From Aureimonas altamirensis (GTDB lineage Bacteria; Pseudomonadota; Alphaproteobacteria; Rhizobiales; Rhizobiaceae), in assembly GCF_023702225.1 (NCBI RefSeq), contig NZ_JAMQCO010000002.1, positions 310,001 through 374,000 on the forward strand: 64,000 bases of DNA, given 5' to 3'. Made by a program: the position numbers and the translations under genes. Shown one piece after another: positions 11,744-46,106 of the stretch (its first letter is position 1; each line of letters opens with the position of its first letter). A model generated the notes under the pieces. The model was given only the letters and a program-made list of their open reading frames with translations, made no database searches and was not told where the DNA came from.

Positions 11744-12883
11744 TCAGCCGAGCCGCAGGAGATCGTTCGAGAATGCGAATACCATGAGCCCCATTACAAG
11801 GACCAGCCCGATTCGGAAACCGATCTCCTGCGTGCGTTCGCTCAGCGGTTTCCCGCGGATCGCCTCGGCCGCGTAGAACAGGAGATGCCCCCCGTCCAGG
11901 ATGGGGATCGGCAGCAAATTCAGCAGGCCGATGGATATGGACAGCAGGGCCGCCATGTTGAGCAGCGTGGCAAAACCGAGGGTTGCCGCCTGACTCGACA
12001 TCTGCGCTATGCGGATCGGTCCGCCGATCTGGTCCACCGGCTGCGCTCCGCGGAACAGCCCGCCGATGAAATCCACCGTGCGCTCGGTGACGAACCAGGT
12101 TTGCGAGACGCCGAACTGCAGCGATTGCAGAACCGTCAGTTCCTCGACCCGAAAGGATGACGCGGCATTCGTCGCAACGATGCCGACGACCGGCATGGTA
12201 TATTCGTTACCGAACGGGTCGGTTTGCGTCCGCTCCTGCGGAGTTACGGTCAGGGGTACTTCCGAGCCGCCTCGCTCCACGACGACCGCGATGGGTATGT
12301 TGGCGCGCGAGGCGACATGGCGCTGGAAATCGCCGAAATAGGCGATGGCCTGCCCATCCGCGCTGACGATCCGGTCACCGGGCATTATACCGGCGGTTGC
12401 AGCCGGCGAATCTGCCTGCACTTCCGCCACGACCGGATCGCCCACGACACGCCCGTTGAAATAGGCCACCCCCGCGAAGATCGCGATGGCCAGGATGAAA
12501 TTGGCCACGGGCCCGGCCGCTACCGTCAAGGCGCGTCGCCCGACGCTTTTCGCGTGGAAAGCACCGCGACGCTCGGCATCGTCCATATGCTCCAGCGCAT
12601 CCCGGTCTGGCATGCTGCCGGCGTTCTCGTCGCCGAGGAACTTCACGTAGCCGCCCAGCGGAATCATGCAGAGCTTCCAGCGGGTGCCGTGCCGGTCGGT
12701 AAAGCCGACCAGTTCCTTTCCGAAGCCGACCGAAAAGGCCAGGATGCGGATGCCGCACCATCGGCCCACCAGGTAATGGCCGAGTTCGTGGAAGAAGACG
12801 ATGACCGTCAGGACGAAAAGAAACGGAACGATCTTGACGAGAGCGCTGTCCCAGACCGCACCGAGTGCGCCCGCTGCATCCAT
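11744..12883 (-). CDS. rseP: RIP metalloprotease RseP (site-2 protease)
   Basis: Intramembrane zinc metalloprotease that cleaves anti-sigma factors and remnant signal peptides in the inner membrane. The 379-residue protein has the zinc motif HELGH at residues 32-36 in the first membrane segment. A PDZ domain lies in the middle (ADSPAATAGIMPGDRIVSADG), and the second catalytic motif is NLLPIPILDGGHLLFY near the C-terminus. It lies between cdsA and bamA, the standard order, and the starting ATG is 37 bp from the cdsA stop. Confidence 0.96.
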   Translation of the reverse strand: MDAAGALGAVWDSALVKIVPFLFVLTVIVFFHELGHYLVGRWCGIRILAFSVGFGKELVGFTDRHGTRWKLCMIPLGGYVKFLGDENAGSMPDRDALEHMDDAERRGAFHAKSVGRRALTVAAGPVANFILAIAIFAGVAYFNGRVVGDPVVAEVQADSPAATAGIMPGDRIVSADGQAIAYFGDFQRHVASRANIPIAVVVERGGSEVPLTVTPQERTQTDPFGNEYTMPVVGIVATNAASSFRVEELTVLQSLQFGVSQTWFVTERTVDFIGGLFRGAQPVDQIGGPIRIAQMSSQAATLGFATLLNMAALLSISIGLLNLLPIPILDGGHLLFYAAEAIRGKPLSERTQEIGFRIGLVLVMGLMVFAFSNDLLRLG

Positions 12884-12919
12884 GACGTGCCTATCTCCAG
12901 ATGTAAGTGTGCAAAAGAC

Positions 12920-13771
12920 CTATAGGTGAAATATGGCGCGGGCGGGTTCTTCAAGCTCGCTTGCGAACAGGCCCGTGAGCCATAGGACGGCCGTGGCGAA
13001 GATGAGCGCGTCGATCCTGTCCATCAGGCCGCCATGGCCGGGGATCAGGCGGCCGGAATCCTTGACGCCGAAACGACGCTTCACCCAGGATTCGTAGAGA
13101 TCTCCTGCCTGCCCCACTGCCGACAGGACGGCCGAGAGCAACAGGATGCCGAAACCGACATCGCCGCTGACGAGATAGGTGTAGAGCCAGCCGGCCAGCA
13201 CGCCGGCGACGAGCCCGCCGACGGCGCCGGAAACCGTCTTCTTGGGCGAGACGAGCGGCATCAGCTTCGGCCCCCCGAACGTCCGCCCGCTGAAATAGGC
13301 GGCGATATCGGTGGACCAGACGACGCAGATGACCAGACCGAGCGCGGCCAGACCCTCGACGTCCTCGCCGCGCACCATACCCGGTGCAAGCCCTGCGATC
13401 GCGGCATAGACGAGGCCGCCGGCAACCCAGTCGGCGCGCTTCTCGCGCCGGTCGACGAAGGCGATGAAAATCGCCACGAATGCCACGATGGCAAGGGCCA
13501 GGAGTTCGAAATGGAACAGGAAGGCCAGAAGAGACAGGGCCAAGGCGTTCCGGGCGACGTCGAACAGCGGGCCGGAACGCTTGGCCCCGGTGATGCGCGC
13601 CCATTCGTCGAAGACGATGAAACCCGTTACGACGCACAGGATACGGAAGGGCAAGCCGCCCATGATGGCCAACGCCAGCACCGCCAGACCCAGGATGACG
13701 GCCGAAATCAGGCGCGGCTTAAGATCGCCCCAGGATTTCGCACGCAGGAACCGTCCGATCTCCAGGCCCAT
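12920..13771 (-). CDS. cdsA: Phosphatidate cytidylyltransferase
   Basis: Makes CDP-diacylglycerol from phosphatidate and CTP for phospholipid synthesis. The 283-residue membrane protein has several hydrophobic helices and the CTP-transferase signature near the C-terminus: VKRRFGVKDSGRLIPGHGG followed by LMDRID. Its start lies three bases after the uppS stop, indicating one transcript. The order uppS-cdsA-rseP-bamA is conserved. Confidence 0.95.
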   Translation of the reverse strand: MGLEIGRFLRAKSWGDLKPRLISAVILGLAVLALAIMGGLPFRILCVVTGFIVFDEWARITGAKRSGPLFDVARNALALSLLAFLFHFELLALAIVAFVAIFIAFVDRREKRADWVAGGLVYAAIAGLAPGMVRGEDVEGLAALGLVICVVWSTDIAAYFSGRTFGGPKLMPLVSPKKTVSGAVGGLVAGVLAGWLYTYLVSGDVGFGILLLSAVLSAVGQAGDLYESWVKRRFGVKDSGRLIPGHGGLMDRIDALIFATAVLWLTGLFASELEEPARAIFHL

Positions 13772-13774
13772 CGA

Positions 13775-14491
13775 TCAGGACGCGATCTCTTGCGACACGG
13801 CGCCGAAGCGACGATCACGCGAGGCATATTCATCCAGCGCGCCCTGCAGGGCGGCACGGTCGAAATCGGGCCAGAGGCATGGCAGAAAAACCAGTTCGGC
13901 ATAGGCCGACTGCCAGAGGAGGAAGTTGGACAGCCTCTGCTCGCCGCTCGTGCGGATGATGAGATCGAGTTCGGGCAGCCCCGCCGTGTCCATGTGGGCG
14001 TCCATCGCCGAGGCGTCGACATCCTCACTGCGCAGTTCGCCTGCGGCGACGCGCTCGGCGATGCGCCGCGCGGCCCGTGCGATCTCGTCGCGCGCGCCGT
14101 AATTGAAGGCGATCACCAGTGTTGTCCCGGTATTGCCGCGCGTCAGGCTTTCGGCCTCTTCCAAAAGGCCGAGGATATCGCTCGGGAGGTTGTCGCGGGC
14201 GCCGATGATGCGCACCCGGACGCCTTCGCGATGCAGTTCCGCAAGGTCGCGCCGGATGAAGATCTTCAGCAGCGACATCAATTCGCTGACTTCGTCCTGC
14301 GGCCGTCGCCAGTTTTCCGACGAGAAGGCGAAGAGCGTCAGAACCTCGATTCCGAGTTGACCGACCGCACGTACGGCATCGCGCAGAGCTTCCACCCCAC
14401 GGCGGTGCCCCATGGTCCGCGGCAGGCCGCGGGCCTTCGCCCAGCGGCCGTTACCGTCCATGATGATCGCGATATGTCGGGGGTGCCGCAC
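13775..14491 (-). CDS. uppS: Isoprenyl transferase (undecaprenyl diphosphate synthase)
   Basis: Cis-prenyltransferase that builds the C55 lipid carrier for peptidoglycan and polysaccharide synthesis. The 238-residue protein shows [14 protein letters not shown] (catalytic Asp12, diphosphate-binding GNGR), the [11 protein letters not shown] motif and a C-terminal [23 protein letters not shown] 14491 was chosen because the conserved opening [10 protein letters not shown] begins at residue 6, as is usual for the family. The gap to frr is 38 bp. Confidence 0.96.
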
Positions 14492-39084: not shown

Positions 39085-40029
39085 ATGACCTTCCAGTTCT
39101 CGACCCCCTCCCAGACCTCATTCCTCTCCACGGCCGGCATCGGCCTGGCGGACCGCGACGCGTGGACCCCGCTGTACTCCGACATCGACCTTTCGCTCGA
39201 CCGCGACGCCGGCATCTACTGGTGTCACCTCCAGCCGCAGTCCCGGCCCAGCGTGACGCCGGAGCTGCTCCGGGACGTGACGTCGATGCAGTCCTTCCTG
39301 CGCAACCGCATGGCGCAGACGCCGGAAAACGAACTGCCGTTCAAGTATTTCGTGGTCGCCTCGCGGTCCACGGGCATCTTCAACCTGGGCGGCGACCTTC
39401 GTCTCTTCGCCGACGCGGTTCGCAAGGGCCACAAGCTTCTTCTCCAGAAGTACGCCCACGCCTGCGTCGACATCGTCTGGAACAACGTCGTGAGCTACGA
39501 CCAGCCGGTCGTCACCATGGCGCTCGTGCAGGGCGACGCGCTGGGCGGCGGCTTCGAGACGGCCCTGTCCTGCAACGTCATCGTGGCCGAGCGCAGCGCT
39601 CGTTTCGGTCTGCCGGAAGTACTTTTCAACCTCTTCCCCGGCATGGGCGCCTATAGCCTGATCGCGCGCCGCATCGGCGCCGTGGAGGCGGAGCGCATGA
39701 TCCTCAGCGGCCGGATCTATACGGCCGAGGAACTGCACCGCATCGGCCTCGTGGACGTGCTGGCAGAAGACGGCGAAGGCGAAGCGGCGCTGCGCGCCTG
39801 GTGCGCGCGGCAGTCGCGCAGCCACAACGCCATGCAGGCGGTGTTCCGCACCCGCAACCGGGTTGCCGGCATTTCCCTGCAGGAGCTGCGCGATGTCGTC
39901 GACATCTGGGTCGATGCCGCGATGCGCCTTGCCCCCTCGGACCTGAAGAAGATGGAGCGCCTTGCCGCCGCCCAGGATCGTCGCTGCAACATCGGCCGCG
40001 AGCAGGACGCGCTGATCGCGGCGGAATGA
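39085..40029 (+). CDS. rpfF: RpfF-like diffusible signal factor synthase (crotonase family)
   Basis: Crotonase-fold enzyme; RpfF proteins have acyl-ACP thioesterase and 3-hydroxyacyl-ACP dehydratase activity and release cis-2-unsaturated fatty-acid signals (DSF). The 314-residue product has the RpfF-type core, not a generic enoyl-CoA hydratase core: FNLGGDLRLFADAVRKG (99-115), ALVQGDALGGGFETALSC (146-163) and RFGLPEVLFNLFPGMGAY (173-190). The two catalytic glutamates of the family correspond to Glu158 and Glu178, with the same 20-residue spacing as Glu141/Glu161 of Xanthomonas RpfF. ATG 39085 has AGGAG 8 bases upstream. Its stop faces the rpfC-like stop across 5 bases, which strongly supports the assignment. 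Confidence 0.88.
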   Translation: MTFQFSTPSQTSFLSTAGIGLADRDAWTPLYSDIDLSLDRDAGIYWCHLQPQSRPSVTPELLRDVTSMQSFLRNRMAQTPENELPFKYFVVASRSTGIFNLGGDLRLFADAVRKGHKLLLQKYAHACVDIVWNNVVSYDQPVVTMALVQGDALGGGFETALSCNVIVAERSARFGLPEVLFNLFPGMGAYSLIARRIGAVEAERMILSGRIYTAEELHRIGLVDVLAEDGEGEAALRAWCARQSRSHNAMQAVFRTRNRVAGISLQELRDVVDIWVDAAMRLAPSDLKKMERLAAAQDRRCNIGREQDALIAAE

Positions 40030-40034
40030 AGCCG

Positions 40035-42581
40035 TCAGGCGTTCTGGTCGCGATCGGAGATCACCAGCGGCCGACGGGCATGCTGACGCAACAGGATCGA
40101 GCGGGCGGTTTCGAACTCCTGCTCGATCCTTTCCACGACGCCGGGCCCGGCCTCGACCAACTCCTCAGACGATTTCGGACGCCAGCTCCGGCACGATTCC
40201 GCCACGCGGAGGACGCCGATATTGCCCGCGCCGCTTTGCAGCGCATGCGCCTTTTCCGCGTATCCCGCCACATCGCCCGCGGCGACGACCTCGCGCAGTT
40301 CCAGCAGCAGAGCGCTGCCGTCGGTCAGGAAGTCGGATATGACCGCCGCCACGAAGGCCGGGCCGCCGAGCGTTTCGAGGTTCTTCAGCATGGCGGTGTC
40401 GACATGCTGGTCGCCTTCGGCCGCGCGCGTTAACGGCGCGTCGGTCTCGCTTACGAGCTTCAACTCCGCCGCAGGCCTGCGATCGCCTTCCCATGCGGCA
40501 CCGTCGCCGTGCTCGGCAAATAGAAGGTCGATCTGCTCGAGCAAGGCGGGTCCGTTGACCGGCTTCGTCAGGCAGGCGTCCATACCGGCCTGCACCGCGC
40601 GGTCGCTTGCCGCCTTGGTTGCATCCGCGGTCAGGCCGACGATCGGCAGATGCGGCCGGCCGAGTGACATCATCCGAAACAGCTTCGTCGACTCCACCCC
40701 GTCCATGCCCGGCATGTTCAGGTCCATCAGAACGAAATCGATGCCCCCCGCCTCCATGGCATCGAGTGCCTCTTCGCCATTGCCGACTACCTTGACGTAG
40801 TGCCCCCCCGCCTCGAGTATCCGGCTGATGACCTTCTGGTTGACGCGGTTGTCGTCGGCCAAAAGGATCCGCAGCCCCTTCTCGCGGCGCACGATGGTGG
40901 AATGGCTGCCCGATGCGGTTTCCGTAGCCCGCCTTATCAATCGCATCGCGTGCATGAGATCCTCCCCGAAACGCTCCTCGCCCACGATGCAGGGAACGAT
41001 GTGCCTGATAGAGGCCGCCGGAAGCCCGTCGGCCCGGCGGGTCAAACCGAATATGCCTGTCGGGGCCGCCGTCCTGAGCTGAGCAACGAACTGCGCCGGA
41101 TCCGCCCCTTCCGGCCAGCCGGGCTCCATCTCCACAAGCAGCACCACGCGGTGCCGGATCTCGTCCGGGGCCGGCAGCACGACCTGCGTTACTGCCTGTT
41201 CCACCGTCCCCGCAATTACGGCAATACCGCTGTGGCGCTGTATCACGGCCGGCACCTCGCCGCCATAGACATGCGACGGATCCAGAAGGATCACCTTCGT
41301 CTCGGACAGGAGCGAGCCGGCGGGCGCCTCCGCCTCTGCCGCCTTGCGGACGGGAATACGCACCCGGAACAGGCTGCCCTCGCCAGGGCGACTGCATACC
41401 TCGATATGGCCGCGCTGCAGGTCCACCAGTTCCCGCACGATGGCCAGGCCCAGCCCCGTGCCTCCGAAGCGGTTGAGAATGGTCGCGTTGGCCTGCGTGA
41501 AACGCTTGAAGATGATCGCCTGTTCGTCATCGGTCATGCCGATGCCGGTATCTTCCACTTCGAACAGCAGCGACGGACCGCCCTTGCCGTCGACATAGTC
41601 CACGGACAAGGTCACGGAGCCGGTCTCGGTGAACTTGATCGCATTGCCCACTAGGTTGATGAGAACCTCGCGCATGCGCCTTTCGTCCGCGGTCAGCAGC
41701 GCAGGGGTGCGTGCGGTGGCGAACAGATGGAACTCGATGTCCTTCGCCCTCGCCTGCACGGCGCCGACGTCGCGCACCCCCGCCAGAAGCTCCAGCGGAT
41801 CGAAAGTGACCGGGGCCAGCTGCAAACGGCCGGATTCGATACTGGAAAGATCGAGAAGATCGTTGATCTGCGACAGCAGCGCGCTGGAGGCGACGCGGAT
41901 CGTGTCCACCATGTCGCGCTGGTCGCGCCGGAGCGTGGTATCGACGAGCAGGTCGGTGGACCCCATGATGGCGTTGAGCGGCGTTCGCAATTCGTGGCTG
42001 ACACTGGTCAGGAAGGCCGATTTTGCGCGGTTGGCCTGCTCCGCCGCTTCCTTGGCGCGGGACAGGCTTCGGATCAGCGTTGCGGCATAGAGCGGCAGGA
42101 TGACGATGCCGCCAAGCAGGCCACCCGACAGAAGCGGCTGGCCCTGCCAGTAGGGCGAGCTCAGTATGACCGTCAGGAAGCCGAGCGTGCCGACGACCGT
42201 CGCCGAATAGAGATAGGCCTCGCCATAGCGGAAGCCGTTGCCGAGGATGATCCAGTAATAGAACGGGTAGAGAATGGCGACGGAGCCCTGCCCGATGGCG
42301 AGGCCGAACGACAGGAGCACAAGGTCGACGGCCATGGCGACGACGCGCCGGACATTGGATATCCCCGGTCGCCATACGAGATGCGCCAGAAGAAGCGTGG
42401 CCGAGACCATGTAGATCACGGCGATCAGACGCGCCGCGAAGGCTGTCTCTCCGCCGGGCATGAAGAACAGCGTGAAGACCAGGATCGCCAGGGAAATTAC
42501 GGCACGGTTGAGCGTGATCTCGTGTTCGCGATCTGGGCGCCTGCGAAACCAGGCCACCCATTCTTTGATAATCACACCCAA
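40035..42581 (-). CDS. rpfC: RpfC-like hybrid sensor histidine kinase (DSF receptor candidate)
   Basis: Inner-membrane sensor of 848 residues. Residues 25-170 form five or so membrane helices with the RpfC pattern RPGISNVRRVVAMAVD, then GNGFRYGEAYL and SSPYWQGQPLLSGGLLG. Next come HisKA (SVSHELRTPLN, His196), HATPase (N-box Asn313; DTGIG; GGTGLGLAI) and a degenerate receiver-like segment (425-550) without the phospho-Asp. A full receiver follows (ILLADDN; Asp620 in VLMDLNMPGMDG; LTKP) and a C-terminal HPt domain (His779 in AHALQSGAGNIG). The start is TTG 42581 or GTG 42575. In Xanthomonas, RpfC binds DSF and also restrains RpfF. Confidence 0.87.
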   Translation of the reverse strand: MGVIIKEWVAWFRRRPDREHEITLNRAVISLAILVFTLFFMPGGETAFAARLIAVIYMVSATLLLAHLVWRPGISNVRRVVAMAVDLVLLSFGLAIGQGSVAILYPFYYWIILGNGFRYGEAYLYSATVVGTLGFLTVILSSPYWQGQPLLSGGLLGGIVILPLYAATLIRSLSRAKEAAEQANRAKSAFLTSVSHELRTPLNAIMGSTDLLVDTTLRRDQRDMVDTIRVASSALLSQINDLLDLSSIESGRLQLAPVTFDPLELLAGVRDVGAVQARAKDIEFHLFATARTPALLTADERRMREVLINLVGNAIKFTETGSVTLSVDYVDGKGGPSLLFEVEDTGIGMTDDEQAIIFKRFTQANATILNRFGGTGLGLAIVRELVDLQRGHIEVCSRPGEGSLFRVRIPVRKAAEAEAPAGSLLSETKVILLDPSHVYGGEVPAVIQRHSGIAVIAGTVEQAVTQVVLPAPDEIRHRVVLLVEMEPGWPEGADPAQFVAQLRTAAPTGIFGLTRRADGLPAASIRHIVPCIVGEERFGEDLMHAMRLIRRATETASGSHSTIVRREKGLRILLADDNRVNQKVISRILEAGGHYVKVVGNGEEALDAMEAGGIDFVLMDLNMPGMDGVESTKLFRMMSLGRPHLPIVGLTADATKAASDRAVQAGMDACLTKPVNGPALLEQIDLLFAEHGDGAAWEGDRRPAAELKLVSETDAPLTRAAEGDQHVDTAMLKNLETLGGPAFVAAVISDFLTDGSALLLELREVVAAGDVAGYAEKAHALQSGAGNIGVLRVAESCRSWRPKSSEELVEAGPGVVERIEQEFETARSILLRQHARRPLVISDRDQNA

Positions 42582-42621
42582 AGCTCGTTCTGATCCGCCG
42601 TTAAGCCGTTCTGCTTCGTTT

Positions 42622-44772
42622 CTAGGCGGCGTTGCCGACCGCCTGCCTGTTGTCGAGCAGCGCCCTCAGGCAGGCATCCGCCGCCACCGGACGCCCGAGA
42701 TAGAAGCCCTGCGCGAGTTCGCATCCTTCATCCTTGAGGAAGGCGAGCTGTTCGGCGGTTTCGACACCCTCGGCGACCACCTGCAGCTTGAGACCGTGAG
42801 CCAGCCTGATGATCGCACGCACGATGGCGGCGTCCGCCTCGCTGCCCGGAATGGCGCTCAGGAATCCGCGATCGATCTTGATGGCGTCGATCGGCAGCAT
42901 CTTGACCCGCAGCAGCGACGAGTATCCGGTTCCGAAATCGTCCAGCGTCAGCCTGATACCCATGTTGTGCAACACGGCCAGGCGTGGCGACGGATTCTGC
43001 ACCGGATCGAAGAACGTGTTCTCGGTCAGCTCCAGTTCCAGATTTGACGAAGGCAACCCGGTGTCTGCCAGGACGCGCGACACCATCTTCGGTATGTCGT
43101 CGTAGTTGAACTGTACCGGCGCCAGGTTGACGGCCATGGTAAGGCTTTCGAAGCCCATCGACCGCCACTCCTGGGCCTGGCGGCACGCCTCTCGCAGGAC
43201 CCAGTCGGAAATGGGCGCGATCAACCCCGTCTCTTCGGCGACGCTGAGGAACTCGGCGGGCGACAGGAGCCCGCGTTGCGGATGCTGCCAGCGGATCAGC
43301 GCTTCCACCCCGGAAATGCGACGCGAAGCGATATCGACCTGCGGCTGGTAATGCAGCACGAACTCGCCCCGCGCCAGCGCATCGCGCATGGCCGCCTCGA
43401 GCAGGGAGGACTCCTTGATGCGGGCCCGCAGGTCCGCGGCAAAGACGCTGTACCGGTTACGGCCTTCGGATTTGGCCTGATACATCGCCAGATCGGCATT
43501 CTTGAGGATCTCGTTCACGTCCTGGCCATGCGGGCCGATCAACGCGATGCCAAGGCTTGCCGTGGCGTTGACCCTGTGCCGGGCAACGTCGATCGGGTCG
43601 GAGAGCGTGGATACGATACGGCGGGCCAGCGCTTCCGCTTCCGACACGTCGGAGATCCCCTCCTGCAGGAAGGCGAACTCGTCGCCGCCGAGGCGGGACA
43701 GGGTCGTGTTCTCGTCGATCAGGAGTTTCAGCCGCTGGGCGATCGACTGGAGCAGCTGATCGCCGACATAATGGCCGAGCGTATCGTTGACGGTCTTGAA
43801 GCGGTCGATATCCAGCAGATGCAGCGCATGCATGCGCCCCGGCCGCGCCGGCTCCAGAAGCAGCGACTGCACCCGGTTCGACAGATAGGTCCGGTTGGGA
43901 AGGCCCGTCAGCCCGTCATGAAGGGCCAACTCGCGCAGACGCTCGTGCGCCATCTTCTGCTCGCTGACATCGAGCGAAGAGGTCAGGACGCCGACGACCT
44001 TGCTGTTGGCATCCATCAGCGGCGACTTCGTCGTCAGGAAGTAGCGCTCGCTCCCCTCGGGAGATCGGATCGCCTCCTCATAGGCGGGGTGCGGCAGGCC
44101 GCGGGTCAGCACGCTGCGCTCCACCTGCCGGAGCCGGGCCACGTCAGTGCCCGCAAGCAGCGTCTCTGCGGGAAGGCCGACACAGGCAGCCGGATCGCGG
44201 CCCGAATAGACGGCAAACATCGCGTTCACGAAGACGCATCGTCCATCGCGATCGGTGGCGCTTATCAGTGCCGGCACCGTATCGATCACCTGCGCAAGCT
44301 GCTCGCGACTGTCGCGCACGGCGATCTGGCGGAAGTACTCGCTGTCCAGCAACCGGCGCTCCAGCGCCTGCGCCTTCAGCTTCACGCTCTGCTGCTGGCG
44401 GCGGAACTTCAGGAAGTTGCGCGCCCGGCTGACGAACTCCTCGTGGTTGACGGGCGTCTGCAGGAAGTCGGTTGCGCCCGCCTCCAGGGCCATGAGGCGG
44501 AAACTGAGATCCTCGTAGGCTGTCAGAACGATGATGGGCACGTCGGCGGAATTGGGCATGTCGCGCAGGCGACGGGTCAACTGGGCGCCGTCCATCCCCG
44601 GCATCTTGTAGTCCGTGATGATGAGGTCCGGCTCGCCCTCTTCGAGCCAGTCGAGCATCCGGAAGGGGCTTGCGAAGGTTTTGACGTTGACGTCCTCCCC
44701 CGCCAGCTTCGACAGACGAGAGTATATCCTTTGGTTGCTGCCTTGATCATCAACAACGACTATCAATGACAT
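42622..44772 (-). CDS. Response regulator with RpfG-like receiver and PAS-GGDEF-EAL output
   Basis: A 716-residue cytoplasmic regulator. The receiver (1-125; DD at 8-9, Asp54 in LIITDYKMPGMDG, Thr84) and the helix after it (RRQQQSVKLKAQALERRLL) resemble RpfG, the usual RpfC partner. Instead of HD-GYP it carries a PAS domain (160-270), a GGDEF domain with intact GGDEF (362-366), and an EAL domain with intact EAL (490-492), DDFG and AEGVET motifs. Both cyclase and phosphodiesterase active sites look complete. The conserved receiver Lys is Thr106 (FLQTPV), an odd change. There is no RxxD inhibitory site before GGDEF. ATG 44772 is preferred over a TTG at 44841. It is 40 bp upstream of rpfC. Confidence 0.85.
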   Translation of the reverse strand: MSLIVVVDDQGSNQRIYSRLSKLAGEDVNVKTFASPFRMLDWLEEGEPDLIITDYKMPGMDGAQLTRRLRDMPNSADVPIIVLTAYEDLSFRLMALEAGATDFLQTPVNHEEFVSRARNFLKFRRQQQSVKLKAQALERRLLDSEYFRQIAVRDSREQLAQVIDTVPALISATDRDGRCVFVNAMFAVYSGRDPAACVGLPAETLLAGTDVARLRQVERSVLTRGLPHPAYEEAIRSPEGSERYFLTTKSPLMDANSKVVGVLTSSLDVSEQKMAHERLRELALHDGLTGLPNRTYLSNRVQSLLLEPARPGRMHALHLLDIDRFKTVNDTLGHYVGDQLLQSIAQRLKLLIDENTTLSRLGGDEFAFLQEGISDVSEAEALARRIVSTLSDPIDVARHRVNATASLGIALIGPHGQDVNEILKNADLAMYQAKSEGRNRYSVFAADLRARIKESSLLEAAMRDALARGEFVLHYQPQVDIASRRISGVEALIRWQHPQRGLLSPAEFLSVAEETGLIAPISDWVLREACRQAQEWRSMGFESLTMAVNLAPVQFNYDDIPKMVSRVLADTGLPSSNLELELTENTFFDPVQNPSPRLAVLHNMGIRLTLDDFGTGYSSLLRVKMLPIDAIKIDRGFLSAIPGSEADAAIVRAIIRLAHGLKLQVVAEGVETAEQLAFLKDEGCELAQGFYLGRPVAADACLRALLDNRQAVGNAA

Positions 44773-44918: not shown

Positions 44919-46106
44919 TCACGCAAGGTCCGTCGCCATCGCGACCTTGCCCTTGCCGCTCCTCTTGGCAGCATAGAGCGCACTGTCGGCTGCCCGCAGG
45001 AGCGGTTTGAGATCGACCTTGTCGGCCGCATCGGGCCGCGCGAAGGCGATGCCGATGCTGACGCCGAGGGAACGGATGTCCTGGCCCGCGACATCGTAGG
45101 GTGCATGCAGATCCTGCATCAGGCGGGCGGCCAGCCTGTCGGCCGATGCCTCGTCGTCGCAAAGGCAGACGAAGACGAACTCGTCGCCCCCGATGCGCGC
45201 CGCCCCCGCTTCGGCCGAACAGTGGACCTGGAGACGGTCCGCGGCGGCGCTCAGGACGGCATCGCCGACATCGTGGCCGAAGCCGTCATTGACCGCCTTG
45301 AACCCGTCGAGGTCCATGTACATGAAGGCCACCAGCCGTCCGGATCCCTCCGCCCTGATGGCGATACGACGCAACTCTGCGACCAGACCCACACGGTTGA
45401 GCAGGCCGGTCAACGCGTCGTGGCGGGACAGGAGCGCGTGCTGCCGCTCCGCCATCATCGTCGTCACGAGGATCGATTTCAGAACATAGGCGGCGCGGCA
45501 CATGCTGAAGATATAGAAGGGAATCTGCACCAGCCCGAGCAGCAACAGCGGCTCGCCGGTAAAGGGCAAGGCAAGGCAGGCCGGCCCGAACGCCAGCACC
45601 ATCATGGCCGAGGCCAGGCGCGGCGTGCCGAAGTTGCGGATGCAGATCCCGCCGATCATGGCGGCGGACGACATCATCGCCATGGTGGACGCCACCCAAT
45701 CGCCGGACAGGAGGCATATGAAACTGCCGTAACCGACGCTGGCCGCCCAGGCGAGCGCCAGCATCATCATGCCATCCGTGTTGGTTTCGCGGCCGAGCTG
45801 CGCCAGCCGCCTGGACCGGACAAGCAGGTAGACGCGGGCAAGGCAGATGAGGATCTCGATGCACACCCAGACATAGAAGCGGGGAGCATCGATCCGGATC
45901 GCGATGAACGTGGCGACGAGGATGGTGTTGGCGACCCCGCCCACGAAGATCGGCAGGGTGCCGTAGAGCCCGCTGAACAGGCGGCCCCTGACTTCGAAAG
46001 GCGCGTCCTCGGAAATATGGCCCAGCCACCTGCCCAGTGCGGTCTTGGGAAGGGAGTAGCCCCTGAAGGCAGTCGAAGCCCGGTCGTTCTTCAAGCGGCT
46101 CCCCAT
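44919..46106 (-). CDS. Membrane-bound diguanylate cyclase (GGDEF)
   Basis: A 395-residue protein with about six hydrophobic segments in residues 50-205 (for example TLPIFVGGVANTILVATFIA) and a C-terminal GGDEF domain (about 220-390). The catalytic motif RIGGDEFVFV and the substrate-binding MDLDGFKAVNDGFGHDVGD are intact, predicting c-di-GMP synthesis. No RxxD inhibitory site precedes the motif. The sensory part is not a MASE domain I can name. It is the same strand and 146 bp upstream of the RpfG-like gene, so it may belong to the same signalling locus. Confidence 0.88.
   Translation of the reverse strand: MGSRLKNDRASTAFRGYSLPKTALGRWLGHISEDAPFEVRGRLFSGLYGTLPIFVGGVANTILVATFIAIRIDAPRFYVWVCIEILICLARVYLLVRSRRLAQLGRETNTDGMMMLALAWAASVGYGSFICLLSGDWVASTMAMMSSAAMIGGICIRNFGTPRLASAMMVLAFGPACLALPFTGEPLLLLGLVQIPFYIFSMCRAAYVLKSILVTTMMAERQHALLSRHDALTGLLNRVGLVAELRRIAIRAEGSGRLVAFMYMDLDGFKAVNDGFGHDVGDAVLSAAADRLQVHCSAEAGAARIGGDEFVFVCLCDDEASADRLAARLMQDLHAPYDVAGQDIRSLGVSIGIAFARPDAADKVDLKPLLRAADSALYAAKRSGKGKVAMATDLA

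What the first reader, a model, noticed from the sequence alone, without database searches (positions are those of the whole stretch)
39085..44772. A DSF-type (Rpf) quorum-sensing locus in an alphaproteobacterium
Seen: an RpfF-like crotonase with both family glutamates (Glu158, Glu178) and the GLPEVLF-NLFPGMG core; facing it, a kinase whose membrane region matches the RpfC pattern (RP-IS-RR, GNG-RYG, SPYW) and which ends in receiver and HPt domains; and beside that an RpfG-type receiver protein. Known: in Xanthomonas rpfF, rpfC and rpfG are clustered and control virulence and biofilm via DSF and c-di-GMP. Inferred: this organism makes and senses a cis-2-unsaturated fatty acid. Rpf systems are best described in gamma- and betaproteobacteria.
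Basis: partly seen in the sequence, partly recalled or inferred. Interest (0 to 1): 0.88.

Follow-up and report, generated by a model that had tools for sequence, protein, structure and literature searches.

The report
Alphaproteobacterial DSF signalling locus, rewired output
An Aureimonas-like bacterium carries genes that look able to make and sense a fatty-acid cell-to-cell signal of the kind known from Xanthomonas, but the protein that should act on the signal carries a different enzyme from the textbook one, and related bacteria share this rewired version.

Summary
(1) RpfF: a DSF-synthase-type crotonase; its model's first 12 PDB matches are all RpfF/DfsA chains, and it groups with characterised RpfF, apart from six ordinary crotonases of the genome. 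(2) RpfC: about five TM segments, HisKA-HATPase-REC-HPt, phosphorelay residues intact. (3) The 'RpfG-type' protein is not an RpfG: the receiver is RpfG-like, but the output is PAS-GGDEF-EAL, and the genome has no HD_5 (HD-GYP) match. Of the 80 best related loci (of 590), 53 carry this triad and 13 an RpfG-type receiver with another output. In 73 of 73 such receiver rows (70 distinct loci) the usual receiver lysine is Ser/Thr/Ala; 7 of 8 HD-GYP RpfG receivers keep it. Best reading: a DSF-type quorum-sensing system in which RpfC feeds an altered receiver that controls c-di-GMP through GGDEF-EAL. Signal production and sensing are inferred, not shown. RpfC-RpfG in alphaproteobacteria is already in print at presence/absence level; nothing I saw in ten searches of open papers describes the swapped output or the missing lysine.

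The parts
39085..40029 (+). rpfF-like DSF-synthase-type crotonase, 314 aa (Glu158, Glu178; glycines 102/103 and 154-156)
40035..42581 (-). rpfC-like hybrid sensor kinase, 848 aa (TTG start at 42581, or GTG at 42575)
42036..42581 (-). RpfC-type input region: short N-terminal sensor (R15-P-D17-R-E19-H20, numbered from the TTG) and about five TM segments
41829..42026 (-). HisKA domain of the kinase (His196)
40530..40868 (-). receiver domain of the kinase (Asp620, Lys673 kept)
40107..40343 (-). HPt domain (His779)
42622..44772 (-). REC-PAS_4-GGDEF-EAL response regulator, 716 aa, in the place of rpfG
44422..44763 (-). RpfG-type receiver; Asp8, Asp9, Asp54, Thr84 kept, receiver lysine replaced by Thr106 (codon 44455-44457)
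43939..44337 (-). PAS domain, kept also in seven relatives that have no enzymatic output
43453..43926 (-). GGDEF domain, intact GGDEF motif; no RxxD seen just upstream of it
42688..43392 (-). EAL domain with intact catalytic residues
44919..46106 (-). adjacent membrane diguanylate cyclase (TM-GGDEF); possible but unproven associate

Best explanation
This is a DSF-type quorum-sensing locus with a rewired output. RpfF makes a cis-2-unsaturated fatty acid from acyl-ACP (inferred from its family). RpfC, through its short N-terminal sensor and TM input, senses it (inferred; three of five mapped sensing residues are kept), autophosphorylates, and relays through its own receiver and HPt (residues kept). 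The phosphate goes to the receiver of the neighbouring REC-PAS-GGDEF-EAL protein (inferred from adjacency, from the RpfG-type homology of that receiver and from co-inheritance), which changes c-di-GMP through an intact GGDEF and EAL pair instead of RpfG's HD-GYP. Because the receiver lacks the usual lysine, its switching probably differs from a textbook receiver, and the PAS domain probably adds a second, cytoplasmic input.
For: RpfF: PDB E=1.3e-54; Foldseek ranks 1-12 all RpfF/DfsA chains at E 5.8e-24 to 3.7e-20, then 2.3e-14 for the next crotonase; RpfF rows apart from six ordinary crotonases of the genome, SH-aLRT 98; both Glu and the oxyanion glycines kept. RpfC: domain order; His196, Asp620 and His779 kept in 73 of 73 rows of the alphaproteobacterial set and 12 of 12 others; sensor Glu19 in 77 of 78, Asp17 in 62 of 78, Arg15 in 49 of 78. 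Linkage: 53 of 80 loci carry the triad; in 398 phylum genomes 42 of the 63 with RpfF also have the RpfC input, adjacent in 40 of those 42; in 21 genus genomes the same five have all three at 73-100% identity. Distances of RpfF, RpfC input and receiver correlate over 76 loci, r 0.75-0.81, 0 of 2000 permutations as high. GGDEF Asp/Glu and the checked EAL residues are kept in 59 of 59 rows except one E671D.
Against: No signal has been measured. NCBIfam's RpfF equivalog cut-off is missed by far (218.7 against 550 bits; PRK08788 is passed, 363 against 177). Two of five mapped DSF-sensing residues differ here (Ser18 to Arg, Gln22 to Ile). The receiver lacks its lysine, so phosphotransfer and switching cannot be assumed. 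P. aeruginosa DspI, reported as a cis-2-decenoic acid enzyme (PMC4504480, passage), ranks only 29th among the Foldseek matches, among ordinary crotonases. The permutation and Fisher figures ignore shared ancestry. 21 of 63 RpfF genomes have no RpfC-input match and 13 of 55 with the input have no RpfF match. 13 of 80 loci show neither partner by the script's thresholds: L029 and L043 hold a cut-off RpfC end, L051 and L064 run out of contig within 0.9 kb, nine have no rpfC nearby.
Confidence: 0.72

Rival explanations
1. The lysine-less receiver is not a phospho-switch but a docking domain, for instance for RpfF or RpfC, so that c-di-GMP output follows the signal through protein contacts (partner swapping) or through the PAS domain rather than through phosphotransfer.
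For: Lys replaced in 73 of 73 rows across the output types; RpfF binds the RpfC receiver (3m6m) and RpfF-REC partner swapping is proposed for Xylella (PMC4504480, passage); the HPt Gly four residues after the phospho-His is Ser in 70 of 73 rows.
Against: Asp8, Asp9 and Asp54 are kept in 72 of 73 rows (one gapped) and Thr84 in 73 of 73, which a pure docking domain would not need; the HPt His is kept in 73 of 73.
Confidence: 0.2
2. The locus senses or handles some other fatty acid (membrane or host lipid, or acyl-ACP overflow) and is not a quorum-sensing system.
For: Only three of five mapped DSF-sensing residues are kept here; position 22 is Met or Ile in 69 of 78 rows of the alphaproteobacterial set against Gln in 12 of 12 others; a CoA-transferase family III gene lies beside rpfF in the Aureimonas loci.
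Against: RpfF is a DSF-synthase-type enzyme by fold and tree, and synthase with sensor is the commonest conserved unit.
Confidence: 0.15
3. An ordinary RpfF/RpfC/RpfG system.
For: Same gene order and orientation as the xanthomonad-type rpfG-rpfC / rpfF loci; receiver RpfG-type.
Against: No HD-GYP in the protein, in the fetched DNA of the 80 loci or, as HD_5, in the genome; receiver lysine missing.
Confidence: 0.03

Closest known systems
RpfF/RpfC/RpfG of Xanthomonas campestris
   Same: DSF-synthase-type crotonase; multi-TM hybrid kinase with REC and HPt; RpfG-type receiver encoded upstream of rpfC; rpfF convergent to rpfC
   Different: Output PAS-GGDEF-EAL instead of HD-GYP; receiver lysine lost; two mapped sensor residues changed; no rpfH in this window's locus (rpfB was not searched for)
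RpfF/RpfR of Burkholderia cenocepacia and Cronobacter
   Same: RpfF-type synthase and a PAS-GGDEF-EAL output
   Different: RpfR starts with an FI domain and senses DSF by its PAS (PMC12838280, passages); here a receiver stands in that place and a separate membrane kinase is present; RpfF falls in a different group of the tree
RpfC-RpfG pairs listed for alphaproteobacteria from KEGG (PMC8895600, passages)
   Same: RpfC-RpfG assigned in alphaproteobacteria
   Different: Presence/absence only in the passages I saw, which also say that no bacterial group holds all Rpf pathway proteins; output domains are not described there

Membership tests
RpfF / DSF synthase | two catalytic Glu (Xcc E141, E161) and oxyanion glycines | tested here: met
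   E158, E178, G102-G103, G154-G156 align with Xcc RpfF
RpfF / DSF synthase | groups with characterised DSF synthases, not with ordinary crotonases | tested here: met
   SH-aLRT 98 in a 127-row quick tree; Foldseek ranks 1-12 all RpfF/DfsA chains
RpfF / DSF synthase | NCBIfam equivalog SgnlFctrSynRpfF cut-off | tested here: not met
   218.7 bits, cut-off 550; PRK08788 (crotonase/enoyl-CoA hydratase family protein) 363 against 177 is met. A curated naming threshold, not a biochemical criterion; I therefore say RpfF-type, not RpfF proper
RpfF / DSF synthase | makes a cis-2-unsaturated fatty acid | not testable with these tools
   needs LC-MS
RpfC | five-TM input, HisKA, HATPase, REC, HPt with phospho-sites | tested here: met
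   the TM count is a hydropathy estimate
RpfC | DSF-sensing residues R15, D17, S18, E19, Q22 (PMC5391125) | tested here: inconclusive
   R15, D17, E19 kept, S18R and Q22I
RpfC | its receiver binds and restrains RpfF | not testable with these tools
   no tool here predicts complexes
RpfG | RpfG-type receiver | tested here: met
   the eight HD-GYP RpfG receivers score 83-111 bits with this receiver; the best receiver outside the locus in 21 genus genomes scores 71
RpfG | HD-GYP output domain | tested here: not met
   PAS-GGDEF-EAL instead
RpfR | N-terminal FI domain before PAS-GGDEF-EAL | tested here: not met
   residues 4-117 are a receiver, directly before the PAS
RpfR | PAS binds DSF | not testable with these tools

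The most novel reading that the evidence does not exclude
Alphaproteobacteria use a third class of DSF circuit. Its fixed core is RpfF, RpfC and a lysine-less RpfG-type receiver fused to a PAS domain; the effector behind that core is interchangeable (GGDEF-EAL, kinase of two types, or nothing). The receiver-PAS pair would be the real integrator, reading the outside signal through RpfC and a second ligand, possibly the same fatty acid, inside the cell, with a switching chemistry that does not use the receiver lysine.
Probability: 0.3. Interest if true: 0.78.

Novelty: new variant of a known kind. Interest (0 to 1): 0.58.

Why it matters
If true, DSF-type signalling is spread through several alphaproteobacterial groups (record titles name Acetobacteraceae, Hyphomicrobiales families, Sphingomonas, Inquilinus, Pseudovibrio and others), and the step from DSF to c-di-GMP has been rewired by exchanging the effector behind one receiver. 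It would also give a natural case of a whole receiver family without a residue that receivers normally need, which phosphotransfer assays can test directly.

Tried and rejected
Simple RpfG reading: rejected. Ordinary enoyl-CoA hydratase reading of RpfF: rejected. PAS as a demonstrated DSF pocket: the AlphaFold model (pLDDT 89.5) matches PAS domains in general; no specific support, kept only as a guess. Adjacent membrane DGC as a DSF sensor: its TM half weakly resembles the TM half of a second class of RpfF partner (20-34 bits), but that domain occurs in 23 of 121 genomes of the order, among them G012, G035, G043 and G051, which one search lists without an RpfF match; no claim is made. Promoter and terminator scan: nothing above shuffles.

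Limits. Ten paper searches of an open-licence library without preprints; one search was too broad to use, looked for the RpfC sensor paper, for lysine-less receivers in general (six papers listed, none opened), one search was limited to 2023 onward. The 80 loci are the best 80 of 590 confirmed relatives, so counts on them are not a survey. I call the rows 'alphaproteobacterial' by their place in the RpfF tree and mostly by record title; the title of L020 reads Mycobacterium sp. KBS0706, that of L017 Terriglobia bacterium (a MAG), and some MAGs are titled only Proteobacteria. In the tree the row L008 is the window's own RpfF, wrongly labelled ordinary crotonase by my script; the ordinary group is six rows. 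Some rows are one genome fetched twice (L010/L146, L085/L150, L067/L151); the 73 receiver rows are thus 70 loci. For one search I left out L145, L146, L150 and L151; its 76 loci include the eight HD-GYP ones.
Full report
What is there. The window lies in a 4.33-Mb draft genome of 41 contigs. The nearest named relatives of the locus are Aureimonas frigidaquae (87% RpfF identity, L009) and A. fodinaquatilis (80%, L010); two genomes that the genome search puts in the window's genus (G402, G401) show the same contig coordinates as those two, so I call the organism an Aureimonas relative. rpfF (39085-40029, +) meets rpfC (40035-42581, -) with 5 bases between; the third gene (42622-44772, -) ends 40 bases upstream of rpfC.

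RpfF. Pfam gives ECH_1; the best solved relatives are Xanthomonas RpfF (E 1.3e-54), 7zq7 of S. maltophilia (6.9e-54), 5fus of B. cenocepacia (1.4e-51) and 6dgn of Cronobacter (2.6e-51), then a gap to E 6e-19 (for names). An AlphaFold model from 42 sequences (pLDDT 87.1; residues 1-13 and 182-185 below 50) has RpfF/DfsA chains as its first 12 Foldseek matches and other crotonases only from E 2.3e-14; P. aeruginosa DspI, itself reported as an RpfF homologue for cis-2-decenoic acid (PMC4504480, passage), comes only at rank 29. In a 127-row quick tree all RpfF rows part from six ordinary crotonases of this genome (SH-aLRT 98), and the window's protein lies in a large, almost wholly alphaproteobacterial group (SH-aLRT 85), beside a xanthomonad-type and an RpfR-linked group. 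Deep branches are only moderately supported and there are long branches, so the order of the groups is open; a few alphaproteobacterial RpfF (L141-L144, L147, L148) fall outside that group. NCBIfam's strict RpfF cut-off is not reached.

RpfC. Pfam HisKA, HATPase_c, Response_reg, Hpt in that order, with about five membrane segments by hydropathy. The published DSF-sensing residues of X. campestris RpfC next to the membrane are R15, D17, S18, E19 and Q22 (PMC5391125, abstract and passages). Over 90 aligned input regions (78 in the alphaproteobacterial set, five of them short TM-only copies; 12 others) E19 is kept in 77 of 78 and 12 of 12, D17 in 62 of 78 and 9 of 12, R15 in 49 of 78 and 10 of 12; position 22 is Gln in 12 of 12 others but in only 6 of 78 of the set, where Met (55) or Ile (14) prevails. 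The window has R, D, R, E, I. The phosphorelay residues His196, Asp620 and His779 and the receiver Lys673 are kept in 73 of 73 rows of the set and 12 of 12 others.

The third protein. It is REC-PAS_4-GGDEF-EAL, not REC-HD-GYP. Its receiver is RpfG-type: the eight HD-GYP RpfG receivers score 83-111 bits with it, whereas in 21 genus genomes the best receiver outside this locus scores 71. No HD_5 match exists in the genome (98.7% complete); the control search rang in 4 of 14 genomes. GGDEF Asp and Glu and the checked EAL catalytic positions are intact in 59 of 59 rows, apart from one E671D; three rows read SGDEF. Both activities look possible.

The locus elsewhere. Of the 80 best relatives (of 590 confirmed), by the script's thresholds 53 have RpfC and REC-PAS-GGDEF-EAL beside rpfF, 7 RpfC and a receiver-PAS protein with no enzymatic output, 6 RpfC and a receiver-PAS-kinase (4 HisKA-type, 2 HisKA_2-type), 1 RpfC alone, 13 neither. 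Of the 13, L029 and L043 hold a cut-off RpfC end and L051 and L064 end within 0.9 kb of rpfF on one side; nine have no rpfC near, though L011, L032 and L077 hold only 1.6-3.3 kb on one side and L016 has a hybrid kinase too weakly alike to count. L075, one of the nine, has a cut-off REC-PAS-GGDEF about 6.8 kb away. No HD-GYP motif was seen in the fetched DNA of the 80, while the same pattern rings in 8 of the 33 loci. The seven PAS-only loci have no GGDEF, EAL or HD-GYP frame in the fetched DNA and form one group on the RpfF tree (SH-aLRT 92), so they are unlikely to be sequencing slips.

Co-inheritance. In 398 phylum genomes RpfF was found in 63 and the RpfC input in 55, both in 42 (Fisher p 1.5e-29, shared ancestry ignored), adjacent in 40 of those 42. 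In 21 genus genomes the same five carry rpfF (81-100% identity), the RpfC input (73-99%) and the receiver (98-100%); two further genus genomes carry a distant (33%) RpfF beside a different partner, and weak RpfC-input matches (31-33%) occur in one genome without RpfF and as a second copy in one of the five. In a family sample only 2 of 199 genomes, this one included, have an RpfF match: the locus is patchy. Distances of the three parts correlate over 76 loci (r 0.75-0.81; 0 of 2000 permutations as high), again without correction for ancestry.

The missing lysine. Receivers normally keep a lysine at the end of strand 5 (general knowledge, not from a call). In the RpfG-type receivers it is Lys in 7 and Arg in 1 of 8 HD-GYP proteins, but Ser 65, Thr 7, Ala 1 in 73 rows of the alphaproteobacterial set (70 loci), across all output types; Asp8, Asp9 and Asp54 are kept in 72 of 73 (one row gapped) and Thr84 in 73 of 73. 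As an internal control, the receivers of the partner RpfC proteins keep Lys in 73 of 73. In the RpfC HPt the Gly four residues after the phospho-His is Ser in 70 of 73 rows and Gly in 12 of 12 others; the three exceptions are kinase-output loci, whose receivers still have Ser. So the lysine loss marks the whole set and the HPt change nearly all of it. What the loss does cannot be told from sequence.

How it most likely works. Shown: gene order, domains, residues, homology, co-inheritance. Inferred from families: RpfF makes a cis-2 acid; RpfC senses it and relays phosphate. Inferred here: the partner receiver accepts the phosphate in an unusual way, and PAS adds an input, since PAS is kept where the enzyme is gone. 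The direction of the c-di-GMP change is not predictable, because both GGDEF and EAL look intact.

What is known. Two core perception routes are described: RpfC/RpfG (HD-GYP) and RpfR (PAS-GGDEF-EAL) (PMC4504480, passages; PMC12838280, passages). The system here has the sensor of the first and an output like the second, joined by the first's receiver. A survey of two-component quorum sensing lists RpfC-RpfG for alpha- and betaproteobacteria from KEGG (PMC8895600, passages). The acidophile survey (PMC9040811, abstract and passages) names DSF systems in Acidithiobacillus and Leptospirillum; the passages shown (12 of 29 places) do not name Acidiphilium among them. PMC10226988 (passages) treats an RpfB-like FadD in Bradyrhizobium, not a synthase. 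No functional or architectural account of an alphaproteobacterial DSF system turned up in the listings and passages of the ten searches; subscription papers and preprints are not in that library, so this is weak evidence of absence.

Noticed in passing
L149:4012-6387, L159:7859-10186, L160:7826-9781, L142:7560-10052, L147:4293-6815, L148:5769-8264, also L143 and L144: A second class of RpfF partner in alphaproteobacteria: a protein with a related membrane half, then GGDEF-EAL (with PAS_7 between in 5 of the 6 scanned), encoded beside rpfF with no RpfC; includes plasmid-borne copies in Methylobacterium oryzae and Sphingomonas parapaucimobilis and two genomes of the window's own genus.
   Followed up: partly
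window 44919-46106 (-): Membrane diguanylate cyclase next to the rpf genes whose TM half (no Pfam match; shared R-N-x3-P) weakly resembles the membrane half of that second class; present in L145 and L010/L146, not seen in L009; the domain is also found in 23 of 121 order genomes.
   Followed up: partly
L018:4145-5068, L020:11857-13245 and 12732-13604, L024:11689-12627 and 12851-13798: Short frames resembling only the RpfC input region lie between the receiver gene and rpfC in Inquilinus-type loci, like rpfH of Xanthomonas.
   Followed up: no
L054, L055, L060, L068, L041, L066: The six loci with kinase outputs are the only ones of the alphaproteobacterial set that keep Gln at RpfC sensor position 22, as in the other 12 rows; GGDEF-EAL loci mostly have Met or Ile.
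   Followed up: no
L140:7670-9622: An rpfF next to a MerR-type HTH fused to PAS-GGDEF-EAL.
   Followed up: no
L133:4688-6565: A divergent rpfF convergent with a hybrid kinase in which the RpfC input region was not detected.
   Followed up: no
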